Source: Candidatus Jettenia sp. (lineage in GTDB: Bacteria; Planctomycetota; Brocadiia; Brocadiales; Brocadiaceae). From it: a stretch of DNA of 64,000 nucleotides. Numbering within the stretch: position 1 is the first letter of the stretch; the number at the start of each line of letters is the position of its first letter. Below are positions 1,999 to 53,702 of the stretch, piece by piece. The stretch is taken from NCBI GenBank assembly GCA_021650895.1, contig CP091278.1:1083659-1147658 (forward strand), given 5' to 3'. The notes beneath the pieces are model-generated. The model had not been told where the DNA came from, ran no database searches, and saw only the letters and a list, made by a program, of their open reading frames with translations. The position numbers and the translations under genes were made by a program.

Positions 1999-3265
1999 TT
2001 ATCTCATATTTCCAAGCGTTTGTGTTAATTTAACCATAGGCATATAAAGAGCGATGATCACAGTTCCCACGATACTGGCAAGGAGAATTATGATAAAGGG
2101 CTCTAGCATACTTTCCAGACGTTTATACAATATATCCAGTTCCTGATCATAAACGTTTGATGTTTCTTCCAACATCTCACCAAACATACCGGATGTTTCT
2201 CCAACCTCAACCATATGGATCGCAAAGACATCGAATAACCGGCTGCGTTTCATCATATCATTCATCGCCTTTCCTTCATAAACCCCTTTCGTGATTAACT
2301 CAACCTCACGGCTGATAACAACATTTCTGACAACAGAACCGGCCACCTTAAGCGATTCCAAGATCATAATACCACTTTTCAGAAGTGTTGCATTGGTCCG
2401 GTAAAACAGAGATAGGCTTGATTTTCGAATAATATGGCCTATGAGTGGAAGAGTGAGCATCAGATGATCCGTTCCATATCTTCCATATTTCGTCATCCGT
2501 AAGACCTTAATTAAAATAAAGATTGCCAGGGGAGTAAAGATAAGTACATACCAGTGTACACTCAACCACGTGCTTGTAGAAAGCACCGTGGTTGTTATTT
2601 TTGGTAATTCCATGTGCAATGTCTGGTATGACTTTTTAAATTTAGGAATAATAAACAGGTTTAAAAGCGCTATAATCCCAAAGGTCATAATAATAACAAT
2701 ACTGGGATAGATGGCAGCAGAAATGAGTTTCGATCTCCTTTTCAAAACCGTATCAAGATAGTTTTCCAACCGTGTCAGCACTTCAATCAGGTTTCCGCTT
2801 TTCACCAGCATGAATTAAACCAAGGTAGAGTTTATTAAAATATTTCGGATACTGGGCAAGTGTTTCCGCAATGTCCTTCCCTGCTTCAACATTATCGGCC
2901 AGATTTTTGACGAACTTTACCAGGCGCTTCTTTTTTGTCTGTGCTTGCAATATCGTAAGGGATTGATACAGGGGAATACCTGCCTGGAGAAATATGCGAA
3001 GTTTTCGGGTAAACTCTACAATATCTTTTTTCTTTACACCCTGAAAAAACGAGAGAAGTGAAGAGAGTTCCCATCTCTTAAAATGCTTTTCCCCTTTTGC
3101 ATTGGTGGAATGAGGTTCCTGGGTAAGATCTGCAGACAGCAGGGAAACAGGGAGAAAACCACTTCTCTTGAGCTTGTTTACTGCCTCTTCGGCATCCCGC
3201 GCCCTGATACGTTTTACTACAAGCTCACCGTGGGAATTTATAACCTTAACATCAAAAAGTGGCAT
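1999..3265 (-). CDS. gspF: GspF/PilC inner-membrane platform protein, frameshifted
   Basis: Two overlapping frames together make one GspF family protein. The first (start ATG 3263-3265, GGAG seven bases upstream) ends soon after GLIHAGEK. The second (to 1999) continues at SGNLIEVLTRLENYLD. The family motif AGExSGNL is split exactly at the junction, in the run of four A (plus-strand T at 2799-2802). GspF organises the cytoplasmic ATPase and pseudopilins in type II secretion or type IV pilus machines. Three hydrophobic segments are visible, including SAAIYPSIVIIMTFGIIALL and the C-terminal IIILLASIVGTVIIALY. It overlaps the upstream ATPase gene by 14 bases. The break could be a sequencing error, real decay or recoding. 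Confidence 0.85.
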
Positions 3266-4515
3266 AGGTATTCTCCATAACTTCACGATATGTCGTTACA
3301 CCCTCAAGTATCTTCTTTACCCCATATTCCCTGAGACTCACCATGCCTTTCTCCTTTACCACTTTATAAAGTGATTCCGTAATATCCATAGCACTGATAA
3401 GTTTCTTTTCGTCATTAGTAATATTCATCATCTCAAAAAGTCCTACCCTTCCCCGGTAACCGGTATAGTTACATAAATGACATCCCCTGCCCCGATAGAA
3501 AACCGGTGAATGTAAGAGTCCGGCCTCAAGTGACAGGATTTCTTCTTCGCTTGGTATATATGATTCCTTACAATTTTTGCAGATCATCCGCACTAACCTT
3601 TGAGCCACGATAAGATTGATGGTATCAGCCAACAGGTAGGATTCTACTCCCATATCAACAAGTCTTGATATTGTACCCACAGTATTCCTTGTATGAACCG
3701 TGCTGAGAACGAGATGGCCGGTAAGTGACGCCTCAATAGCCATCTTTGCAGTCTCCGTATCCCGAATTTCACCGACAAGGATGATATCCGGGTCCTGCCT
3801 TAATATACTCCTCAGGGATGATGCAAAAGTTAAGCCTATTTCTGGTTTGATCTCAACCTGCATAATGCTGTTGATCTCGTATTCTATCGGGTCCTCAGTG
3901 GTAATAATCTTTGTATCTATCTGATTTAATTCATTCATGATGGCATAGAGTGTTGTTGTCTTTCCTGAGCCTGTCGGGCCAGTAACAAGGATAACGCCAC
4001 TTGACTTTCCCATATTTTCTCGTATCATCTTCAGACTCCCGTCATCAATACCCAAACTTGTCAGATCCAGTTTAACAGCAGATTTGTCAAGTATCCTTAT
4101 GACAATTCCTTCGCCATAGATCATCGGTATAACAGATACCCTCAATTCAACAACCCGCTGATCCACATTGATGGTAAACCGGCCATCCTGGGGCAGTACC
4201 TTCTCAGTTATATTTAATCTTGCCAGCACCTTAATTCTGCTTATGAGACCAACACCAAGTTGAAAAGATATCGGTTGCGTCTCGCGGAGTAAACCATCAA
4301 TCCGGAATTTAATTACATAACGGCCATAACAAGCTTCCAGGTGAATATCGCTCGATCTGCTCCTGATAGCTTCCAAAAGGATAAAATTCATTCCCCCTGA
4401 TTATTTCAGGCTGTGTGGCAAGTACCCGTAGATCCTTCTCGGCCAGATTGCCCTGAAGCTGCCGTTCAAGGCCGTAAAACACATCTTTGCTAATCTTGAG
4501 TGGACTATCTTCCAT
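3252..4515 (-). CDS. Second GspE/PilB-type assembly ATPase, short N-terminus, frameshifted
   Basis: The ATPase core is complete: GPTGSGKTTTLYA (Walker A), ITTEDPIEY (Asp box), DIILVGEIRD (Walker B), STVHT (His box) and a Cys4 zinc site (CKNC ... CHLC). The N-terminus is in another frame (MEDSPLKISKDV to PEIIRG). Removing one G from the GGGGG run (plus-strand C at 4393-4397) joins it in frame as IIRGMNFILLEAI. The joined product is about 420 residues and lacks most of the usual GspE N-terminal domain. Its ATG shares one base with the TGA of the ATPase gene upstream, so translation is probably coupled. Together the two ATPases may split extension and another motor function; this is inference, and the motif set does not mark it as PilT. 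Confidence 0.85.
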
Positions 4516-6153
4516 CAGGTAACCCTCAATACCTCGTATATCGATGTTATCCCCTTCATGGCCTTCCTGATCCCATCTACTCTTATAGCCCGCATACCCT
4601 GTTCTAATGCTGCCTTCCTGATCGCCATCGATGATGCCCCTTTCTTTGTTAACTCCTTTATCTCTTCGTTCAGGGTCATAATCTCAAAGAGAGCGGTTCT
4701 TCCCTTATAACCACTAAAATTACATTCCTTGCATCCCGCCGGACTGAACCACATCGCGTCCTTTTCAACATACCAGCTTCCATTGAACTCCTCTTCTCCT
4801 TCCTTTCTCATCCAGGATACAACTTCATCCACTGCAGGCTTGAAAGGAATTCTGCATTTTTTTACACAACGTCCTTACTAACCGTTGATAGATAACTGCC
4901 TGTACTGAAGCATTGATCATAAATGGCGGAAGCCCTATATTGATTAACCGGGTAATAACCGATGGGGCGTCATTGGTATGAAGGGTGCTCATAACCTTAT
5001 GACCGGTCAGCGAAGAGCGCATGGCAATCTCAACCGATTCCAGATCACGCATCTCTCCTACCATAATAACGTTCGGATCGTGCCGTAAAATATGTTTCAG
5101 GATTCTGCTGAACCCACGGCCATGTTCAGCACTTACCTGGATTTGATTCACTCCGTCAAGGGTATATTCCACAGGATCCTCAATAGTAATAATTTTTACC
5201 TCGGGGCTCATCAATTCATTCAGCATGGCATACAACGTTGTTGTTTTCCCGCTCCCTGTTGGCCCTGAAATAATCATCATCCCGTCGGGTATGGCAACGA
5301 TGGAACTGAGTTGGTTGTAATCTTCTTCAAGGAGTCCTAATGTTCTCAGTCCCCTGAGTACGTTTGCATTGTCCAGTATTCGTAATACAATACTCTCACC
5401 ATGAACAATGGGCAGGGTTGAGACCCTTATGCTGATGTCTATCCCTGACTGCTGTATTTTAGCCCTGCCGTCTTGTGGCAATCTCTTTTCCGCAAGGTCG
5501 AGCCCTGCCATTACCTTAATACGAGAGATAATCGTAGGTTGTAATCTTTTCTCAAAGGAATTGACCTCATAACAAAAATCATCAACCCGGTAACGAACCC
5601 TGAGCCGTGTCTCCAGTGGCTCAATATGTATATCACTGGCATTCATAGAAATGGCGTCTGATATGATGGTATTCACTAATTCAACAATGGTATCGTCATC
5701 ATAGGACAGAACGGGTTCCGTGGAACGGCGCACTGTTTGTTGTAACCCTGCAGGCATAAGGCCCATGCTGTTTGAATAATATCTCTGAATCAGTCCTTCT
5801 ATATGATCCTTCTCTGCTATAACGAATTTTACTTTTTGACCTATGAAGAATCGTACGTCATCAAGAACGGTCGAATTTGGTGGATTTGATAAAGCAATAG
5901 TTACCATCCCATCCTCGTTATTAACAGGTACAAGCAAATGCCTTCTTACCATATCTTCCGGAACAGACCGAAGTATTTCCGGAGTTAAGTCTACATTGGT
6001 TAATTCAATAGATGGTAACCCTGTTGGTGAATCGAGTATCTTTGCTGTTTCATCTTGAACGGTATAGCCAAGATTGATAAAGATATCTTCTCCACCCAAT
6101 GTCTTGCTACTCCTTATGAATTGCACTGCATCATCAACTTCTTCTTGCCGCAT
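4515..6153 (-). CDS. gspE: GspE-type secretion/pilus assembly ATPase, frameshifted near the C-terminus
   Basis: The N-terminal GspE domain (about residues 30-130) is followed by the ATPase core: NASDIHIEP, GPTGSGKTTTLYA, ITIEDPVEY, NVIMVGEMRD and STLHT. The frame breaks after RTLCKK at a run of seven A (plus-strand T at 4857-4863). Removing one A gives CKKCRIPFKPAVDEVV and restores the first half of the Cys4 zinc site, whose second half GCKECNFSGYKGR is in the next frame. The corrected protein is about 546 residues, normal for the family. It powers pseudopilin assembly from the cytoplasm. It lies 60 bases downstream of a pseudopilin gene and is coupled to the second ATPase. Confidence 0.88.
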
Positions 6154-19867: not shown

Positions 19868-21850
19868 CTACAAATACTTTTGTCCGGTGGGGCTTAAAAT
19901 ACGGACTGTTACAAAGATCAACAAGTGTGTCTTTTCATTCCTTGTCGTCCTTCTCTTAAAAAGATTACCGAGAATGGGAATATCACCCAGGAATGGAGTC
20001 TGCTGTTTTGTAAAGTTTTTTCTTCCCGTAATTTGACCTCCAAGTACGACCGTATTTCCGTCTTCAATTGTTAATTGGGTATTCACTATCCTTGACTCAA
20101 TAATTGGCCGCACAATATCCGGAACGGTAATATCTCTTATAATCGCAGCATTCTGAATCACTTCCTCATCGACAACACTTCTTACAACGGGCTGGATTAC
20201 CAGACTGATGGTTTTTGCATCAGCACCAATACTGGGAGTCACATTGAGTGCAATACCCTCAAAATTCTGATCATTAATATTAGCCTTTAAGGCAGGCTCA
20301 CTAACAATCACATTTCCGCCAGCCGAAGGCTCGACATCGCTTACACCTGAAGTAACAACCTCGTAATCTTCTACAAAAGGAACGTTCCTGGCAACGGCAA
20401 TAGTAGCCTGGCTATTATTGGTAGTTGTAACCTTTGGAGAGGAGATGGTTGTTACATTCTCTGATCGATCTAAAAGAAATAAGACTGCTTGAAAATCAAA
20501 CTGATCGATGACACCACTCAAAACTACAGTGGAACCTCCCGTGGTTACCGGCGGCGCACTAAAGGGGATGTTAAAGAATGTGCCTGAATTGTCCTTTACC
20601 TTAAAGTTGATGCCGAAGTCAAAATCCTCGACATGTGATACCTCAAGAAACCGGGATTCGATAACAACCTGAATTGGATCTTTATCTAATTCTTTTATAA
20701 GTACCGCTATCTCTTTATGAACCTTGGATGTCGTTCGTAGAAAGACCAGATTCTTCTTCCTGTCCAGAAGTATCTTGCTCCCTTCAGGCCACTCTACCAA
20801 ATCCTTAATATTCTCAAGGATAACTTCAATGGACGACTTCTTTCCCAGGTTACCGCTTACTTCACTCACCTTTCCCCCACCGGGACCCATTCCGGCGCCC
20901 GCCATACCCATGTCCATACTCATACTCATACCCATGCCCATACCCATACCTCCGCCCATACCCCCACTCATGCCTCCACCCATACTACCTCCCCCAATAC
21001 CACCATTTAACGAACTCAGACTCTGAACAAAACTCAGATCTGAGAGGGCGACAAAATCCTTGACCAATTTCGACTCGTTCAGTCCTTTATTGAGATGATA
21101 GACCCGTGTTTCAAACTCCCGCGCAATCTTCTTTTTCGATGCCTCACGTGATGTCAGGTAGACAGTATTACCTTTTGTTTTCATCTCAAGGTCATACTGA
21201 TCGGAGAGATAATTAAGAATGTCCTCTACGGTCTCATCCCTAACCCTGATATTTATTTTCCTCTCATTGAGGATTGTGGTATCTGCCAGGATATTAACGC
21301 CGGTATTTCTAAATATCTCGGAGATAAGAAAGTCCAGATCGACGTTGTTAAGATCGATAATCCCTACTTTTTGCATCAACTTCTTTTTTATTTCCGGTGA
21401 TAGTTCTTTGACCTGTGATATCGATTCGCCTAAACCAGGTGCTCCCTCGATCTCTTCACGATCTTTCTCTGGCTTTTCTTCAGGTAAATGCGCCTCTTTT
21501 TCAACATCAAGCAGCATCTTTTCATTGTCAAGGCTGCTCTGCTTCTCCATAAGTTCTTTTCTCTCCTGGAGCTGAGCACGTCTTGCATTGTAAAGATAAA
21601 AATTTGCCTTCCTTCGTGTTTCCGGATCTTTGCTCTTGTTGAGTTTTTCGGCCCTCGCTATCACCTCATCATAGAGACCTTTTTTATATAAGCTCTTCAA
21701 TTCACGTATTTTTTTATCGCTCTCTTCTACGATATCAACCTCATCATTCGTAGTAACCCTCTTGGTCTGTTGTGCACAATTCACGAAAAAAACGAGAGCA
21801 CTGAAACAAATAATGGTTACCTTAACTTTTCTCAAAAATCCGAATACCAT
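19868..21850 (-). CDS. Secretin (GspD/PilQ family) with Gly/Met-rich insertion
   Basis: The start is placed at ATG 21848-21850, with AAAGAGGT upstream, instead of the frame limit at 21907. The leader ends VFFVNC, a lipobox. A helical TPR-like region follows, then an STN/N0 domain (INLNNVDLDFLISEIFRNTGVN) and a secretin core: VVIESRFLEVSHVEDFDFGINF, TISSPKVTTTNNSQATI, GVDAKTISLV-like and GNTVVLGGQI...TPFLGDIPILGNLFKRR. This forms the outer-membrane gate for the secretion or pilus machine. The N-domain contains an unusual run of Gly and Met with little else, about 45 residues (20890-21000). It lies upstream of PilM-N, as in type IV pilus operons although the gene order is reversed. Confidence 0.9.
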   Translation of the reverse strand: MVFGFLRKVKVTIICFSALVFFVNCAQQTKRVTTNDEVDIVEESDKKIRELKSLYKKGLYDEVIARAEKLNKSKDPETRRKANFYLYNARRAQLQERKELMEKQSSLDNEKMLLDVEKEAHLPEEKPEKDREEIEGAPGLGESISQVKELSPEIKKKLMQKVGIIDLNNVDLDFLISEIFRNTGVNILADTTILNERKINIRVRDETVEDILNYLSDQYDLEMKTKGNTVYLTSREASKKKIAREFETRVYHLNKGLNESKLVKDFVALSDLSFVQSLSSLNGGIGGGSMGGGMSGGMGGGMGMGMGMSMSMDMGMAGAGMGPGGGKVSEVSGNLGKKSSIEVILENIKDLVEWPEGSKILLDRKKNLVFLRTTSKVHKEIAVLIKELDKDPIQVVIESRFLEVSHVEDFDFGINFKVKDNSGTFFNIPFSAPPVTTGGSTVVLSGVIDQFDFQAVLFLLDRSENVTTISSPKVTTTNNSQATIAVARNVPFVEDYEVVTSGVSDVEPSAGGNVIVSEPALKANINDQNFEGIALNVTPSIGADAKTISLVIQPVVRSVVDEEVIQNAAIIRDITVPDIVRPIIESRIVNTQLTIEDGNTVVLGGQITGRKNFTKQQTPFLGDIPILGNLFKRRTTRNEKTHLLIFVTVRILSPTGQKYL

Positions 21851-21964
21851 AATATTGAACTTACCTCTTTCATGTAAAATTTCCCCTTTATATTCGTCAA
21901 ATTCCATGAGATAATTCTTTCGTGTGATTCATGGTTTATCCTGGTAACGCTGCTACTTTTCATT

Positions 21965-40996: not shown

Positions 40997-41311
40997 TTAC
41001 ACCAGAGCTTGTAACCCTATCTTTTTTAATTGTCTCTGGTTTTCCTTCATTTTCTGATGTACAGATGACCATGATCTTTTTGCATAGACAATGGGGATGC
41101 CTTTACTTTCAGCGATCTTTTTTATCTTATGTGATAGATTGTGATTGACAAAGTCGTACAGTACTATGATAAAGTCCATAGTTTCCGGAATCCCGCCATG
41201 TACCTTTTGTCCACTCCGCCCAGTTATGTGCCGAACATCATTTACCCCCATTCTATCAAGTTCTTTTGGAATACTACCTAAATGATCACCACCAACAATA
41301 AGTACAGACAT
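40997..41311 (-). CDS. DUF2325 family protein
   Basis: The start is placed at ATG 41309-41311, with GAGGAGGAG eight bases upstream. The longer frame to 41371 runs into the promoter and operator. The 104-residue product MSVLIVGGDHLGSIPKELDRMG is Rossmann-like; DFIIVLYDFVNHNLSHKIKKIAESKGIPIVYAKRS completes a DUF2325 fold, shown here as the family pattern. The biochemical role of the family is not established. The gene is controlled by the best palindromic operator in the window and is monocistronic, which would suit a stress or redox response. Confidence 0.82.
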   Translation of the reverse strand: MSVLIVGGDHLGSIPKELDRMGVNDVRHITGRSGQKVHGGIPETMDFIIVLYDFVNHNLSHKIKKIAESKGIPIVYAKRSWSSVHQKMKENQRQLKKIGLQALV

Positions 41312-41345
41312 TTTTCTCTCCTCCTCTTCAAAGTTATTAATAGAT

Positions 41346-41394
41346 ATATTGAGACTCAGTCTCAATATCATATAAAAAAAATTTTAGATGTCAA
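41346..41394 (-). promoter_or_regulatory. Promoter with perfect palindromic operator of DUF2325
   Basis: On the minus strand: TTGACA at 41389-41394, 16-base spacer, TATGAT at 41367-41372, operator TGAGACT-C-AGTCTCA at 41350-41364. Arms extend to 11 bases each side of the centre (41346-41368), overlapping the -10 box. This is the strongest copy of the motif. Confidence 0.8.
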
Positions 41395-41947
41395 TACAAA
41401 ATAAAAAATTTATCTTAAGTTTCGTATAGTTAACAAACTCTAAAACATTCATAATGGTGGAAGAACAGGGACTATGCAGGTAAGTACCTGATCACAAGTT
41501 TTTGTACATTCTCTTCATCAAGAGAATATAGAAGACAGAATCCAGAAGACAGGATACCCCTTGCGGGTTCAATTTTGTAAATTGAACCCCTATATTTTGC
41601 GTGGTCGATAGCTCATAGCGTTTTCATGGTTAAACACAGAGGGAAATATTCCAAATTGAGGGTTCAGGTTATAAACCTGAACCCGCGCCCAGATATTGCT
41701 ATCAGATATATAGATAACTTATGGAGAAATGCTCCATTTACCCACCCCTAAATCCCCTCCCAAGAGGGGACTTTTTACTCCCCTCTTGAGAGGGGCGAGG
41801 GGTGTGTTCATGGCATAACGAAAAACTTTGAAATTTCTATACATTCCATGAGATTGTAAACCGGATATACCATAATTCTGATGAATTTATCTATAGATAT
41901 CCCGAAAAACGGCACGTTTTATTCCCCAATCTTCAGTCAAAATGCTA
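41395..41947. other. Intergenic region with C-rich palindrome
   Basis: The only recognisable feature is the C-rich palindromic repeat at 41737-41803 (second copy of the 9303-9368 unit). A short inverted GGTTCA/TGAACC pair lies near 41575-41690. No gene was seen. Confidence 0.6.
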
Positions 41948-44458
41948 TCACTTATTTTTCACGGCATCCTCAAGTGCCTTCAATCGCTTTAGCTTCATTG
42001 CCTCGTCCTGAATATGTGTGAGTTTGCCCATAGTTTGCGAACTGCCCAACCACCAACTTATATCCTGCTGGGCATGGGCTACCCCTTTGTACCCCTGCAA
42101 ATGTTTCCAAAACCACATCTCTACATATTCCCTTTCCACACCGCTTGGATTTCCATCCTTTTCAGTGAATATAGCATAGGCGCCAAGAATTGGTCCTACA
42201 ACTGGCAAGTGACCATTGGTTTTTTTCAAGAGATTATAAACTTCCGATCCTAATTTTTCAGGACCGAGTATCTTGACCATTAAGTCACTCAAGGGAAAGG
42301 GAGGTCTTTCTTCCGGCGATGGCTTAACCATATCCCCGGCAAAAAGCTCTTCTACGATGAACTGTGCCTCATCTATCCGTTTCCATGACTCAAACATATA
42401 TTGATCCATAGAATCCAGCCACATCTTTGAAAATCGGCTGCCATGACATTTTGCACAAAGTTCTATCCAATAGCGCCGTTTCTCAAGGCTTTCCGGGGAA
42501 TAAATTTCAAGCTTCTTATCCATCGGCGGTATTTTTACACCATAGGGAAAATCCTTTAGACTTGATTTAAACTCCACTTCTTTTGGTGGAGTGACCCCCA
42601 TACGCCATATACCTTTGGTCTCCACGTTCATTTCCCATCGGCCGTTACCTACATACATATGACAGTATTGACATGTCGGGGTAGGATAATCTTTGCCGGG
42701 AATCACCTCAGAGAGTTTCTTTTCCCAGTTCCACTTCTCCCCGGAAATCTCATAAGCAATTCCCCATCTGGAATGTATATAACTCTCCCAGTCAGGATGA
42801 TCAGGTCCTAAATGACAGCCTGAACATACCTCCGGACGGCGCGCTTCGGCAGCCGAAAAGAGATGACGACCATGACAGTCATCACATGATGACATATTCT
42901 GATGACACTGATCGCATCCAATCATAGAAAAACCCTGATTGCGCCGGTAATTCTCGACATACCACGGCGTTGACAAACCTCCTTCCCAACTATGAGGATG
43001 ACTTGGCTTACCGTAATCTCTGCCTCTGGCAAACTCCTTTGCCTGGTTTGGATGACATATACCACATGAGTTATCTGCTGTAGGCATAAACAAGCTTTCA
43101 TGATCTTTGCCGTGACAATAGGAACAATAAACGCCATCTTTGGTCCCTGGTTTCCAGTTGTTTAACTCCTTACCAATAAGCTCCTCAATCTCCTGTGTCT
43201 CTGCAGCAACCTCTGCATTCTTCTTAGGATTTGCATGATTGGACATCTTCCATTGCGCTACAATACCGGGAGTAGCTTCTTCATGACATTCCACGCACTC
43301 ATCGTACCGGTATTTCTCTAAAAGCTTTTTATAATCATTACTGTCAGTTGGGAAATAATGCCTTGCTGGATTAAAGTAGATATAAAAGGGAATCGGTTTA
43401 TAAAATTCTCCCCATGGACCATCGCCCTGAGACAAACCTACAAAATCCTCAAACATCTTCTTAAGCTCCGGATCCGGATACGTAAAAGAGCCTGGAGGGC
43501 CTTTAAGCACAGGGGGAACTATTTCCGTTTTAGGTCTTTTTGTTTCATCTTCCACCACAAAAATTCCAAACATCCCATTCATCATATGCTCATTATCATG
43601 GCAGTGGAACGCCCAGTTACCGGGTCCGACACCCTCTCCGGCAACAAAATCCAGGACATACGAAGTAAAAGGCGCTAATGATATGTTATCAACAAGCTGT
43701 CCACTCGCTTTATCCATCCAGCGATGACCATGAGTATGAAAGGTGTGCATCTCTCCGGAAGAATTTATGAGATGAAATCTTACCTTTTCACCCATCTTTG
43801 CCTGCCATACCAATCCGGGAAAGGCAGAACGGTCTCCGTTCATAAATTCCACATCTCCGGACTTATCGTTAAAGGCCTCATATTCCTTTCCCTGTAAAAG
43901 AAACGTATGCATGAAGACTACAAACTCTTTATCAGGGGGGTCTGGATCGCCATCCTCTGGTTCCACAATGAGAGATCCCCATAATCCTCTGGATACCCCC
44001 TCTTCGCCTCCCATCTCAAAGACATGAGGGTGATAAAACCAGGTTCCCGGCGTACCAGAGGTATCCCACTCAAACGTCCCTGAATATCCGGGATCTACGA
44101 TACTAGCCAGATTTCCTGCTATATGAGCGCCATCACTGGCAACCGTGTACTTTACCCCATGAGGATGGATAGATGAAGGGACGGTAAGTTTATTCGTGAA
44201 GTGGATTCTGACCTTCGTTCCTTCTTTCACTTTGATGGTGGGACCAGGCACGGTCGGTTTTTCTCCTTTTATACAGTACCCCCATGCACCAAAGAATACC
44301 CCCGGCCTGAGTTCCAGATCAACAGACCTCGCCTCCATCTCAAGATTAAGAACTCCATCTTTCCCTACAAGACAGGAAATTTCAGCGTATCCATACCGAA
44401 ACCAGAAAAGAAGACATACAAGAACTGTTGTCGGGTAAGCCCATAATTTACGAGACAT
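41948..44458 (-). CDS. Multicopper oxidase / octaheme hydroxylamine-oxidoreductase-like fusion, probable encapsulin cargo
   Basis: A signal peptide (to about residue 25) precedes two cupredoxin domains: IHPHGVKY, WFYHPH, HTFHTHGH and AFHCHDNEHMMNGM, a full set of type 1 and trinuclear copper ligands. From about residue 385 there are eight CXXCH hemes (CVECH, CSYCH, CGICH, CDQCH, CDDCH, CSGCH, CQYCH, CAKCH). CSGCHLGPDHPDWESY is the region conserved in HAO. The fusion of 836 residues could pass electrons between an octaheme N-oxide site and a copper site. It starts 3 bases after the encapsulin stop, so it is cotranslated with it. I recall similar NIR-HAO fusions named as encapsulin cargo in anammox bacteria. 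The complete HCH/HPH set looks more like a two-domain laccase than NirK. Confidence 0.9.
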   Translation of the reverse strand: MSRKLWAYPTTVLVCLLFWFRYGYAEISCLVGKDGVLNLEMEARSVDLELRPGVFFGAWGYCIKGEKPTVPGPTIKVKEGTKVRIHFTNKLTVPSSIHPHGVKYTVASDGAHIAGNLASIVDPGYSGTFEWDTSGTPGTWFYHPHVFEMGGEEGVSRGLWGSLIVEPEDGDPDPPDKEFVVFMHTFLLQGKEYEAFNDKSGDVEFMNGDRSAFPGLVWQAKMGEKVRFHLINSSGEMHTFHTHGHRWMDKASGQLVDNISLAPFTSYVLDFVAGEGVGPGNWAFHCHDNEHMMNGMFGIFVVEDETKRPKTEIVPPVLKGPPGSFTYPDPELKKMFEDFVGLSQGDGPWGEFYKPIPFYIYFNPARHYFPTDSNDYKKLLEKYRYDECVECHEEATPGIVAQWKMSNHANPKKNAEVAAETQEIEELIGKELNNWKPGTKDGVYCSYCHGKDHESLFMPTADNSCGICHPNQAKEFARGRDYGKPSHPHSWEGGLSTPWYVENYRRNQGFSMIGCDQCHQNMSSCDDCHGRHLFSAAEARRPEVCSGCHLGPDHPDWESYIHSRWGIAYEISGEKWNWEKKLSEVIPGKDYPTPTCQYCHMYVGNGRWEMNVETKGIWRMGVTPPKEVEFKSSLKDFPYGVKIPPMDKKLEIYSPESLEKRRYWIELCAKCHGSRFSKMWLDSMDQYMFESWKRIDEAQFIVEELFAGDMVKPSPEERPPFPLSDLMVKILGPEKLGSEVYNLLKKTNGHLPVVGPILGAYAIFTEKDGNPSGVEREYVEMWFWKHLQGYKGVAHAQQDISWWLGSSQTMGKLTHIQDEAMKLKRLKALEDAVKNK

Positions 44459-44461
44459 ACC

Positions 44462-45595
44462 TTACTCCAGTGTGCAAATGGCTTGAGGGCATTTAATTCT
44501 CAGCACTGAACTCCCAACAACCCTGAACCGGTGATTCAAATCCTGAGAGCCCCAGTACTCTACCTTAAAATTAATCCCTACCGCCAAATCCAGGTTTTGT
44601 CTGCCAGTCGCTACAACAAGGGCAACATCCTTTTTGAATACCGGACTTTGATATACGCCCCCTTTTACCAACTCCTTTACCCCTTCTATTTCTAATTTCC
44701 CTGTACGCTCATAAACCTTATGGAGGAGGGCGTAAAGTTTTGGACTCACAACGAGGGCATAAGGAGGGGAAAAACCCGAACTCCTTAGTTTTTCCACAGC
44801 CGATACAATATCCTGAAAACCATTCCCTATTACCGACCAGTCACTAAGCTTCAGGATATTCCTTCCGTTAGCATTTAAAAGTCCCGACATACCCATTTCC
44901 GGCAGGCCATGAAATATAAGATCGTCTTCCCTGGCGGCAGCAGCTATTGCGGCGCCCACCGCAGCGCTTACATCCAATGGAGTCTCACACTTTTTCCTTG
45001 CCTCTATATCCCTCCAGAAGAGCCAAAAATCTTTGTAAATAAGAGGTATGTGTGCAATTTCTCTTTTCAGGGAATGTATGGCTTCGTTTCCCTCGCCCAA
45101 CATATCAACATTTGCCCAGGAGGGTATTGCATAGGTATCAAGAGGTACACATTGAGCGCCTGTTCCTAATGGACCGTAAACCTCGATAAACTTTCTTCCC
45201 ACACGATGCCCTTCAACCGTCTCGTGGACTGTACGCTGCAATTTTGCCCAGTCTTCGGTACCAAGATGCACTTCAGATGTAATTTCTGCACATCTTGCCT
45301 CTTTCATCCCCGGGGATGTCTCCCCTTGTGAACAACCATAAGGCGCTCCCCCTTCCTTTGCTAAATCAGATGAAACAACTGGCGCTTTATGGCATGCAAG
45401 ACAGCCCTGCTCCAGGTATTGACAATTTTTATGGACCTTTCTTAATTCCTGTGCTGTGTGACACGAAAAGCAGTCATTTTCTTTCGTACACGCAGCAAAA
45501 ACAGATGAACCCCATGGTGAAAAACAGAATGTTACGAGTAAGGCAATAACCCCTGCCAAACCATGCAACGTTTTATATTTACTTAGCATACTCAT
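44462..45595 (-). CDS. Secreted diheme cytochrome c - encapsulin shell protein fusion
   Basis: A signal peptide (residues 1 to about 34, ending SVFA) is followed by two heme motifs CFSCH and CLACH within 45 residues. A family 1 encapsulin domain of HK97 fold follows: TVHETVEGHRVGRKFIEVYGPLG, PLIYKDFWLFWRDIE, YALVVSPKLYALLHKVYERTG and GINFKVEYWGSQ. Encapsulins form protein shells that hold redox enzymes; a heme module on each subunit could let electrons cross the shell. Export would put the compartment outside the cytoplasm, probably in the anammoxosome or paryphoplasm. AGGAGGAAGGG precedes the ATG. The MCO-octaheme gene follows directly. Confidence 0.9.
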   Translation of the reverse strand: MSMLSKYKTLHGLAGVIALLVTFCFSPWGSSVFAACTKENDCFSCHTAQELRKVHKNCQYLEQGCLACHKAPVVSSDLAKEGGAPYGCSQGETSPGMKEARCAEITSEVHLGTEDWAKLQRTVHETVEGHRVGRKFIEVYGPLGTGAQCVPLDTYAIPSWANVDMLGEGNEAIHSLKREIAHIPLIYKDFWLFWRDIEARKKCETPLDVSAAVGAAIAAAAREDDLIFHGLPEMGMSGLLNANGRNILKLSDWSVIGNGFQDIVSAVEKLRSSGFSPPYALVVSPKLYALLHKVYERTGKLEIEGVKELVKGGVYQSPVFKKDVALVVATGRQNLDLAVGINFKVEYWGSQDLNHRFRVVGSSVLRIKCPQAICTLE

Positions 45596-45639: not shown

Positions 45640-46131
45640 TTAGCTCTTTCCCAGTAATTTATGTATATCTTTATCTATATGATCCGGTTCGGCATATCCC
45701 TCTTCTTTATGATATTCGAGTTCTCCGTTTTTATAGTAATATATCGTGGGAATCTTTCTGATTTTATAAATATAGCTCATCTCTTCTTTATCTCCAGCTT
45801 TAAAAATGGGGAATGCAACCCCTTTTGCTTCAATAAGATCCTTTGTCTCTTTTCCTGCCTCATCAAGTACAACACCTAGTATTTCTAAATTCTCCTTTTT
45901 GTGTTCCTTATAAATATCATTCAGTGCAGAGAGGTGCTCCTGGCAAACCTTGCATTGTGTTTCCCAGAAAATTACCGCCACGACCTTATCGCTTTTTGAT
46001 TTAATAATCTCTTTCAATTGTGTAGAGGTTATACCCTTGATATCACGTGCATAGGAAACCGTTGGTAAAAATAAGACCATAAATAAAATAAGAAGTACTG
46101 ATGCTCTTTTTAGATGGGAAATACTAGACAT
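45640..46131 (-). CDS. Exported TlpA-like thioredoxin
   Basis: A signal peptide (LILFMVLFLPTVSYA) precedes a thioredoxin fold with WETQCKVC as active site (CXXC), cis-Pro region KIPTIYYYKNG and a TlpA-type strand VVAVIFW. In 163 residues it is a single-domain disulfide reductase. Located 44 bases upstream of the encapsulin, it could keep CXXCH cysteines reduced for heme attachment, as CcmG/ResA do. AAAGGAG precedes the ATG. Confidence 0.85.
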   Translation of the reverse strand: MSSISHLKRASVLLILFMVLFLPTVSYARDIKGITSTQLKEIIKSKSDKVVAVIFWETQCKVCQEHLSALNDIYKEHKKENLEILGVVLDEAGKETKDLIEAKGVAFPIFKAGDKEEMSYIYKIRKIPTIYYYKNGELEYHKEEGYAEPDHIDKDIHKLLGKS

Positions 46132-46415: not shown

Positions 46416-47477
46416 CTATTTGGATATTGAGTCTGTATCTCTTGAAAGTGCCCTGGGACCTTCCAGACAACTCTGAATATCTTCTTCAACCTGCTTTTCT
46501 ATCCATCTCGTTATATTTTCATGAGGCAGCAAGGTTTTACCATTGAAGATATAGGTAAGCCCTTTTAGTGCTTCAACAATCTCATTTTCTACACCGCCGG
46601 AGGAAAGTAAATGTGGGATAATAATAACTCTTCCATCCTCCCCGCTTGCTTTTACCATTGTTCTCAGCTCATAAATTGCCTTGTCTTTAATCTCTTTCGG
46701 GGCATCGCTTCTCCACGTGGCAACCTTCACTTCCTTAAATCCTCCTTTTTCGCAGACATATGCGGCAAGTTTCCGCATATCATGTAGCCAAAGTTTATTC
46801 TCATTCTCATCATTAGGCCCATGTCCAACCAAGATAACGGTTTCTTCCGCCGGATTCGTACTTAACTCGCGAGACCTTTCCAAAAGGATCTCTGCCACAA
46901 GAGGACTATCGTTAAGAGCCTCTGTCATAGAGAACCTTAGCTTACTCTCTAAACGGGGTAAGGATTTAACATCTGTCGTATAGGGTAATTCTTTTTGCAG
47001 ACCAAGGATGTAGCGGGAATTGCCTATAATTGGACTGTGAGAAGAGATGAACAATGGTACTACTATTACCCCGGAAACACCCTTTTCTTCTAATTTATGG
47101 ACGGCTTCCTTTATAGTCTCCGGATCAGCCATACCAAAGGCGACTTCTAACGGATACGTATCTTTGAGTGGCTTGACGGCTTCTAAAACAGAGGCATTCC
47201 ACGATGGGATTTCTTCCGGGGGCCGTTCTCCATGAACGTGACCTGCTCCTTTTTCTCCATGCCCGTGATGTGCCCCATGTGCAAGAACCAACACCCCTAT
47301 GGTTTTTGGCTGTGCCATTGCTGATAGTGTTTTTTCTTCTGTACAGGTGGTTTGACCAGGATTTTGCGCATCATGGAATCTTCCCTTTTCTTCCTGACTA
47401 TAGGTTGGTGGAATGTGTAAAAAACCCATAACGAGTACCATGAAAGAGATACTGTTCCAAAAAGCAAATCTTTCCAT
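46416..47477 (-). CDS. Exported CbiX-like chelatase with His-rich loop
   Basis: A signal peptide (FMVLVMGFLHIPPTYS) is followed by a doubled CbiX/SirB-type fold. The first half has IGVLVLAHGAHHGHGEKG, with a His-rich metal loop of seven histidines in 20 residues. The second half has VILVGHGPNDENENKLWL and IIIPHLLSSGGVENEI. Cytoplasmic CbiX inserts cobalt or iron into sirohydrochlorin; a secreted form would act outside the cytoplasm, for instance in handling heme iron or metal. AAGGAGGAATAAGG precedes the ATG. It lies upstream of the thioredoxin-encapsulin operon and may feed multiheme protein maturation; this is inference. Confidence 0.8.
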   Translation of the reverse strand: MERFAFWNSISFMVLVMGFLHIPPTYSQEEKGRFHDAQNPGQTTCTEEKTLSAMAQPKTIGVLVLAHGAHHGHGEKGAGHVHGERPPEEIPSWNASVLEAVKPLKDTYPLEVAFGMADPETIKEAVHKLEEKGVSGVIVVPLFISSHSPIIGNSRYILGLQKELPYTTDVKSLPRLESKLRFSMTEALNDSPLVAEILLERSRELSTNPAEETVILVGHGPNDENENKLWLHDMRKLAAYVCEKGGFKEVKVATWRSDAPKEIKDKAIYELRTMVKASGEDGRVIIIPHLLSSGGVENEIVEALKGLTYIFNGKTLLPHENITRWIEKQVEEDIQSCLEGPRALSRDTDSISK

Positions 47478-52688: not shown

Positions 52689-53702
52689 TTATTTTACGTG
52701 GAGCAAACCTCCAGCCCCCTTTGGTACCCTGAACAGGGCATGGTCAACAATAGAAAAATCGCCAGTCGCTAATGCCTTAAACTCAAATACTGCGGCAGAT
52801 CCGGGAGGAACGTAAGCCGTTTCCTCATTTCTTATAAAATCGAGGTGGTGGCCAGAATAAAACTTATCGAAGATCTGACCAATAATATGGAAATTTGATC
52901 CAATATTTGGACCGCCAGCGACAAAAAAGAGGCGAACTTTATCACCCTGATTCACGGTTATTGCGTTGCCGTATATTGATGGATCCATAAGCGCCTGTGT
53001 ATGACCATTAAAGGTAAAATAATCGGGATGCTCAGCCAGCGCCTTCTTCTCATTAAGAGAATAACCAGGGATGTTTGGATGATCTTCGATGCCTTGCTTG
53101 AGATACCATTCACCCTGCCCGATATAGAATTCCTTATCGACCTTTGGGAGACCTCCCCTTGGTTCGACAACAATCAGGCCGTACATCCCATAGGCTACAT
53201 GCTCCCATGGCATTCCCTCAGCACCGCAATGGTAGATATATGCCCCTTTTCGCATCGCCTTGAACGTTAAGGTATCAGTCTCCCCAGGCTCAATATCCAT
53301 TAACATGGCGCCAAAACCGGCATGGAAATCAAGATTATGTGGTTCTTCGTTATGTAAGTCATTCGTTAGATTAATGACTACCGTATCGCCTTCCATAACT
53401 CGTATCATAGGACCCGGAACAGTTGCTGGTCCTACGGTATCTCCTTTTTTTTGTGCAAAAGTCCAGAACCAGAATTTCTTTCCGGGGGCAAGATCAGCAA
53501 CAACCTCCTTGGCAATCAAATTTACCGTTACAGTCTTCGGGCAGAACCTCGATATACGGACTGGAATATCAGTAGGGTCCTTGGCAACGTTGCTAATAAT
53601 ATCCACGGCATGTGCTACAACGGTATGGGTAAAGAATACCAATCCATTGAGAAGAGCAATAGCTCCCATTCCCCATACAATTTTCTTATATCGCCGTTCC
53701 AT
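52689..53702 (-). CDS. nirK: Copper-containing nitrite reductase (NirK-type)
   Basis: The signal peptide ends near VVAHA. The first cupredoxin domain has PGPMIRVMEGDTV, EPHNLDFHAGFGA (Asp and His of the type 2 site) and GAYIYHCGAEGMPWEHVAYGMYG (type 1 Cys, His, Met and the intervening type 2 His). The second domain has GSNFHIIGQIFDKFY and SIVDHALFRVPKGAGG (remaining type 2 His). At 337 residues it matches NirK, which reduces nitrite to NO. NO is the anammox intermediate for hydrazine synthesis. AAAGGAGG precedes the ATG. A regulated promoter lies about 180 bases upstream. Confidence 0.9.
   Translation of the reverse strand: MERRYKKIVWGMGAIALLNGLVFFTHTVVAHAVDIISNVAKDPTDIPVRISRFCPKTVTVNLIAKEVVADLAPGKKFWFWTFAQKKGDTVGPATVPGPMIRVMEGDTVVINLTNDLHNEEPHNLDFHAGFGAMLMDIEPGETDTLTFKAMRKGAYIYHCGAEGMPWEHVAYGMYGLIVVEPRGGLPKVDKEFYIGQGEWYLKQGIEDHPNIPGYSLNEKKALAEHPDYFTFNGHTQALMDPSIYGNAITVNQGDKVRLFFVAGGPNIGSNFHIIGQIFDKFYSGHHLDFIRNEETAYVPPGSAAVFEFKALATGDFSIVDHALFRVPKGAGGLLHVK

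What the first reader, a model, noticed from the sequence alone, without database searches (positions are those of the whole stretch)
41948..45595. Secreted cytochrome-encapsulin with a copper/octaheme fusion as probable cargo
The shell protein carries a signal peptide and two hemes before the encapsulin fold. Three bases later begins a signal-bearing multicopper oxidase fused to eight hemes in HAO order. This suggests an exported compartment with electron wiring through the shell. The pairing has, to my memory, been reported for anammox genomes (encapsulin surveys), but export, the laccase-like full copper ligand set and the substrate remain open.
Basis: partly seen in the sequence, partly recalled or inferred. 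Interest (0 to 1): 0.8.

Follow-up and report, generated by a model that had tools for sequence, protein, structure and literature searches.

The report
Known anammox heme-encapsulin with enzyme cargo
This is the already described protein nanocompartment of anammox bacteria (a heme-bearing encapsulin shell next to a copper-oxidase/octaheme fusion enzyme); the comparison made here shows that shell and enzyme never occur apart, but that the shell's hemes and part of the copper site come and go between species, so the octaheme half looks like the conserved working part.

Summary
Window 44462-45595(-) encodes a family-1 encapsulin with a signal peptide and two CxxCH motifs. Three bases later, 41948-44458(-) encodes a signal-bearing two-domain laccase-type multicopper oxidase fused to an octaheme HAO domain. 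The system is published: cytochrome-encapsulin plus NIR-HAO cargo of anammox bacteria (PMC6934571, PMC8346489, PMC8229669), including export, the laccase idea and the missing HAO tyrosine. The window lies in a Jettenia genome.

Added here: (1) In 62 Brocadiales genomes shell and cargo occur in exactly the same 20. (2) The window's copper ligands are complete, but the type-3 copper pair is damaged in 5 of 18 cargos compared, in at least two lineages, while eight CxxCH persist in all 17 HAO-bearing cargos. (3) The HAO half is of the crosslink-free HAOr type. (4) Seven shells lack the hemes yet the genomes keep the cargo, and the cargo's C-terminus is the ordinary last HAO helix; so neither docking by that C-terminus nor loading only through the cytochrome domain is supported.

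Both structure predictions failed (mean pLDDT about 42), so heme-domain placement and co-assembly are untested. The substrate remains open.

The parts
44462..45595 (-). cEnc shell protein: signal peptide (about residues 1-34), diheme c domain (CxxCH at 42 and 65), family-1 encapsulin fold (about 110-377)
45290..45493 (-). N-terminal diheme segment of the shell (68 aa, P0001); no Pfam family above its cut-off, weak resemblance to multiheme cytochrome units; no second copy in this genome
41948..44458 (-). Cargo: signal peptide, two-domain laccase-type multicopper oxidase (about residues 34-305), linker, octaheme HAO domain (about 331-836)
43499..44458 (-). Copper half (residues 1-320): all T1, T2 and T3 ligands present, aligned to a small laccase
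41948..43498 (-). Octaheme HAO half (residues 321-836): HAOr-like, Leu at the position of NeHAO Tyr467, active-site Asp553-His554 kept
45640..46131 (-). ResA/TlpA-like thioredoxin with signal peptide and CKVC motif, just upstream of the shell; present near the shell in most relatives; possible helper for heme attachment (inference)
40997..41371 (-). DUF2325 protein downstream of the cargo; kept near the locus in several relatives; named as possible secondary cargo in PMC6934571

Best explanation
A family-1 encapsulin system of anammox bacteria, exported by Sec, most likely into the anammoxosome lumen. The shell subunits carry an N-terminal diheme c domain that would line the inner wall, since encapsulin N-termini face inwards. 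The cargo is a fusion enzyme whose conserved working part is the HAOr-type octaheme domain, reducing nitrogen oxides (nitrite to NO, or removing hydroxylamine or NO). The copper domain acts as a redox partner or, where its trinuclear site is intact as in this window, also as a scavenger of O2 or another oxidant. Both domain families are known to form trimers, so the fusion is probably a trimer. Shown here: gene order, domains, ligands, signal-like N-termini, strict co-occurrence. From the literature: shell assembly (T=3). Inferred: compartment, encapsulation of this cargo, direction of catalysis, electron path, trimer.
For: Domain and ligand evidence. Shell and orthologous copper domain in the same 20 of 62 Brocadiales genomes, never one without the other. 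Adjacent in 15 of 15 relatives first read. Hydrophobic signal-like N-termini in shell and cargo nearly throughout, heme-less shells included (the B. carolinensis and G416 shells are truncated or of uncertain start). HAO half closest to 6h5l and, within its own genome, to a 49% identical paralogue; the crosslink-Tyr position is L or W in all 16 testable cargos and Asp-His is kept in 17 of 17. Eight CxxCH in 17 of 17 HAO-bearing cargos while copper ligands are damaged in 5 of 18. Literature: T=3 shells, Sec signal, proposed detoxification; encapsulin in the anammoxosome proteome; Xing et al. 2020 on hydroxylamine stress, known only as cited in PMC8229669 and PMC12445922.
Against: No loading peptide found in the cargo, so encapsulation of this protein is inferred from gene pairing. 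The HAOr assignment gives only a likely direction of catalysis; HAO-like proteins vary. One relative (L082, matching S. rubra) has the copper protein without any HAO half, so the HAO domain is not universal either. No usable structure prediction was obtained.
Confidence: 0.6

Rival explanations
1. The copper half is the main enzyme: a laccase-type oxidase that removes trace O2 (or oxidises phenols, NO or metals), fed with electrons from the octaheme half; the shell keeps the oxidase away from the anammox enzymes.
For: Complete T1/T2/T3 ligand set in 13 of the 18 cargos compared, the window's included, aligned to two-domain laccases. L082 (matching S. rubra) keeps only the copper protein, with a full ligand set, beside the shell. 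PMC6934571 raises the same idea.
Against: T3 ligands changed in 5 of 18, in at least two lineages, while the heme motifs of all HAO-bearing cargos stay complete.
Confidence: 0.22
2. The compartment mainly stores or handles iron, the hemes of shell and cargo serving as electron conduit for iron oxidation or reduction; the 25 nm iron-rich particles of anammoxosomes would be these shells.
For: Proposed in the literature from particle size and as iron storage in PMC8346489.
Against: The gene beside the shell in every relative read is the copper or copper-HAO protein; no ferritin-like partner was noticed, although neighbouring genes were not systematically annotated. Heme-less shells exist with the same cargo.
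Confidence: 0.1
3. The fusion protein is not encapsulated but sits outside the shell and docks to it, the shell hemes passing electrons across the wall.
For: No C-terminal targeting peptide; both proteins carry their own signal-like N-terminus.
Against: Strict co-occurrence in 20 genomes and persistence of the pair with heme-less shells, where there would be no wiring to use.
Confidence: 0.08

Closest known systems
cEnc / NIR-HAO encapsulin systems of freshwater anammox bacteria (PMC6934571, PMC8346489, PMC8229669)
   Same: Signal peptide, diheme domain, family-1 encapsulin, adjacent NIR-HAO fusion, neighbouring Trx and DUF2325 genes, no detectable targeting signal on the cargo
   Different: Nothing essential; this is such a locus in a Jettenia genome
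Heme-less anammox encapsulins (S. rubra, Scalindua SCAELEC01, RIFCSPHIGHO2; PMC6934571)
   Same: Same shell family and same copper or copper-HAO cargo
   Different: No cytochrome domain on the shell; S. rubra has the copper protein without HAO
HAOr, octaheme HAO-like protein of K. stuttgartiensis (kustc0458; taken to be PDB 6h5l)
   Same: Eight hemes, no crosslink tyrosine, Asp-His kept, homologous to the last helix
   Different: Not fused to a copper domain, not linked to an encapsulin gene
Two-domain (small) laccases such as 4m3h, 3tas, 3cg8
   Same: Two cupredoxin domains, one T1 site in domain 2 and a full trinuclear ligand set
   Different: Fused to an octaheme domain; T3 ligands lost in several relatives
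Myxococcus xanthus EncA (4pt2, 7s20)
   Same: Family-1 shell, alignable over residues 110-377
   Different: No signal peptide or hemes; ferritin-like cargo with C-terminal targeting peptides

Membership tests
Family-1 encapsulin | HK97-type shell protein of the Linocin_M18 / encap_f1 family | tested here: met
   PF04454 1.7e-62; NF041155 241.9 bits, cut-off 100; EncA 1.4e-77
Family-1 encapsulin | Self-assembly into icosahedral shells | not testable with these tools
   T=3 reported for cEnc systems in PMC8346489
Family-1 encapsulin | Cargo with C-terminal targeting peptide (usual, not universal, in the family) | tested here: not met
   C-terminus is the HAO last helix, no CLP-like motif by a simple pattern; the published cEnc systems also lack one, so this does not exclude membership of the shell
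cEnc / NIR-HAO anammox system | N-terminal signal peptide plus diheme c domain on the shell | tested here: met
cEnc / NIR-HAO anammox system | Adjacent copper-oxidase/HAO fusion gene | tested here: met
   co-occurrence
cEnc / NIR-HAO anammox system | Cargo located inside the shell | not testable with these tools
   needs purification or cryo-EM
Two-domain laccase | T1 His-Cys-His-Met site plus eight His of the trinuclear site | tested here: met
   (met in the window; not met in 5 of the 18 cargos)
Two-domain laccase | O2 reduction with oxidation of a donor | not testable with these tools
   needs purified protein
NirK copper nitrite reductase | Curated profile match (TIGR02376, cut-off 296.3 bits) | tested here: not met
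   59.6 bits; best relatives are small laccases
HAOr (crosslink-free octaheme HAO) | Eight CxxCH in an HAO-type domain, no Tyr at the position of NeHAO Tyr467 | tested here: met
HAOr (crosslink-free octaheme HAO) | Reduces nitrite | not testable with these tools
   activity of kustc0458 taken from PMC12485887

The most novel reading that the evidence does not exclude
A compartment enzyme in transition: lineages that lost type-3 copper ligands but kept T1 and T2 (G267, G088, K. hertensis) have turned a laccase-type domain into a NirK-like T1+T2 site or a pure electron relay, and some genomes (G405/L068) mix heme-bearing and heme-less shell subunits to set how many hemes line the compartment.
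Probability: 0.15. Interest if true: 0.55.

Novelty: already known. Interest (0 to 1): 0.3.

Why it matters
The function of anammox encapsulins is an open question. Finding that shell and cargo are inseparable across the order, that shell hemes are optional, and that the copper site is repeatedly damaged while the HAO hemes are not, narrows the hypotheses: neither O2 reduction nor shell wiring is likely to be the shared purpose, and Jettenia/Brocadia-type cargos (copper site intact) against K. hertensis-type cargos (copper site damaged) form a natural test pair.

Tried and rejected
Structure prediction of shell (14 rows) and cargo (10 rows): mean pLDDT 42.6 and 41.3, discarded, no fold search run. 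C-terminal docking tail: rejected, homologous to a stand-alone HAO. Simple CLP-like pattern in 18 cargos: none. An internal linker motif PP-x-L ... S-[FLY]-x-Y before the HAO half is conserved, but part of it aligns to the HAOr N-terminus; kept only as a weak candidate docking segment. NirK identity of the copper half: rejected. Attempt to show that G088 is K. stuttgartiensis: failed, it lacks a close kustc0458 copy, so it is not named. The VPAGGAAV motif reported as a cargo tag in Scalindua NirK may be part of the NirK fold itself: the window's NirK-like protein about 7 kb away has VPPGSAAV.

Full report
Observation. The shell protein has a signal-like N-terminus, two CxxCH motifs (residues 42, 65) and a family-1 encapsulin fold from about residue 110. 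The next gene has a signal-like N-terminus, two cupredoxin domains of the small-laccase kind and eight CxxCH motifs in an HAO-type domain. The window lies in a 3.8 Mb single-contig genome.

Prior knowledge. The system is published. PMC6934571 describes cEnc followed by an NiR/HAO fusion in four freshwater anammox species, heme-less variants in Scalindua and others, neighbouring Trx and DUF2325 genes as possible secondary cargo, the lack of the HAO C-terminal tyrosine, and the laccase alternative. PMC8346489 counts nine cytochrome-fused shells, reports T=3 particles and proposes Sec export into the anammoxosome. PMC8229669 states that the cargo lacks a detectable targeting signal and that loading is thought to occur through the cytochrome domain; it also cites Xing et al. 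2020 on hydroxylamine stress, a paper I could not read.

Pairing. In 62 Brocadiales genomes the shell is found in 20 and the orthologous copper domain (over 350 bits) in 20, and the two sets are identical. The pair is adjacent in all 15 relatives first read. Gene order and content can differ: G407 has the cargo before the shell, and G416 has the copper protein alone, matching the published S. rubra locus in the lengths of both proteins. G070, G239, G248, G399 and others have neither, so gain or loss goes as a unit.

Copper site. Alignment to a small laccase supports every ligand in the window. Among the 18 cargos compared (the window's included) T1 is intact in 16, T2 in 17 and T3 in 13. G267, G088 and K. 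hertensis lose one ligand of each type-3 copper together (H287 to Q; H145 to M, Y or L; K. hertensis also H285 to Y). Loosdrechtia loses H287 and the T1 His291, and G407 loses most of the site. On the HAO tree this takes at least two changes, though many branches of that tree are weak. The assignment of ligands to T2 and to the two T3 coppers follows the classical multicopper oxidase scheme (established knowledge, not computed here).

Octaheme half. Its closest solved sequence is 6h5l, which I take to be K. stuttgartiensis HAOr (kustc0458) from general knowledge. The alignment places the window's Leu804 (Trp in the other genera) at NeHAO Tyr467, so the crosslink tyrosine is absent, and Asp553-His554 of the active site are kept in 17 of 17. 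HAOr reduces nitrite to NO slowly according to PMC12485887.

Shell hemes. Of the 18 shells with a full core, eleven have both CxxCH motifs and seven have none (L065, with its second motif damaged, not counted). On the shell tree the trait needs four changes, at least two of them forced by well-supported branches. G405 (L068, L085) has a heme-less shell gene directly followed by a heme-bearing one; its cargo, on another contig, follows a shell C-terminus. B. carolinensis, reported in PMC6934571 as lacking the cytochrome domain, has both motifs in frame in the assembly read here, with a damaged or mis-started signal peptide.

Mechanism. The best reading is an exported, heme-lined shell around an HAOr-type reductase with a copper side domain. 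Because hemes on the shell are optional and type-3 copper ligands are lost more than once, neither is likely to be the shared function; the octaheme domain is the most constant catalytic part, except in the S. rubra-like system. Loading cannot depend only on the cytochrome domain, if the cargo of heme-less shells is encapsulated too, and nothing points to the cargo C-terminus. Encapsulation itself, electron path and substrate are inferences.

Limits. E-values, alignments and co-occurrence are computed; the co-occurrence figure ignores shared descent. Signal peptides were judged by hydrophobicity and the A-x-A-like end, not by a dedicated predictor. Structure models were unusable. Some relatives are draft assemblies, so single ligand changes could be errors, but paired changes in three genomes are unlikely to be. 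The T3 damage was not found described in the held library (one search), which does not show that it is unpublished.

Noticed in passing
window 52689-53702 (-): NirK-like copper nitrite reductase (TIGR02376 229.9 bits, below the 296.3 cut-off), about 7 kb upstream of the shell gene; carries VPPGSAAV, like the motif proposed as a cargo tag in Scalindua NirK.
   Followed up: partly
L068 6001-7719 / L085 1-1719 (G405): Tandem shell genes: a complete heme-less encapsulin directly followed by one with the diheme domain, suggesting mixed shells; G153 has a broken extra shell copy upstream of the intact one.
   Followed up: partly
G000:C1:791564-793059 (outside the window): An HAO paralogue close to the cargo's HAO half reads in two overlapping pieces in different frames (matches to query 6-222 and 216-514), so the gene is split or frame-shifted.
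   Followed up: no
L039 / L066 (B. carolinensis): The shell has both heme motifs in frame although PMC6934571 lists this system as lacking the cytochrome domain; the start of the ORF looks damaged or mis-annotated.
   Followed up: partly
window 41747-41810: G+C-rich inverted repeat (CCCCTCTCAAGAGGGG ... CCCCTCTTGGGAGGGG) downstream of the cargo gene, terminator-like or a small repeat element.
   Followed up: no
window 46416-47477 (-): CbiX-domain protein with a signal-like N-terminus upstream of the thioredoxin, conserved in the other Jettenia genomes; possible exported metal-chelating role.
   Followed up: no
window 3252-4391 and 4825-6153 (-), 19868-21907 (-): Two GspE/PilB-type ATPase genes and a secretin in one region: type II secretion or type IV pilus machinery.
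   Followed up: no
Loosdrechtia (L043/L070): Its cargo HAO half groups with Jettenia while its shell groups with nzgw511: possible exchange of one partner, or weak branches.
   Followed up: no
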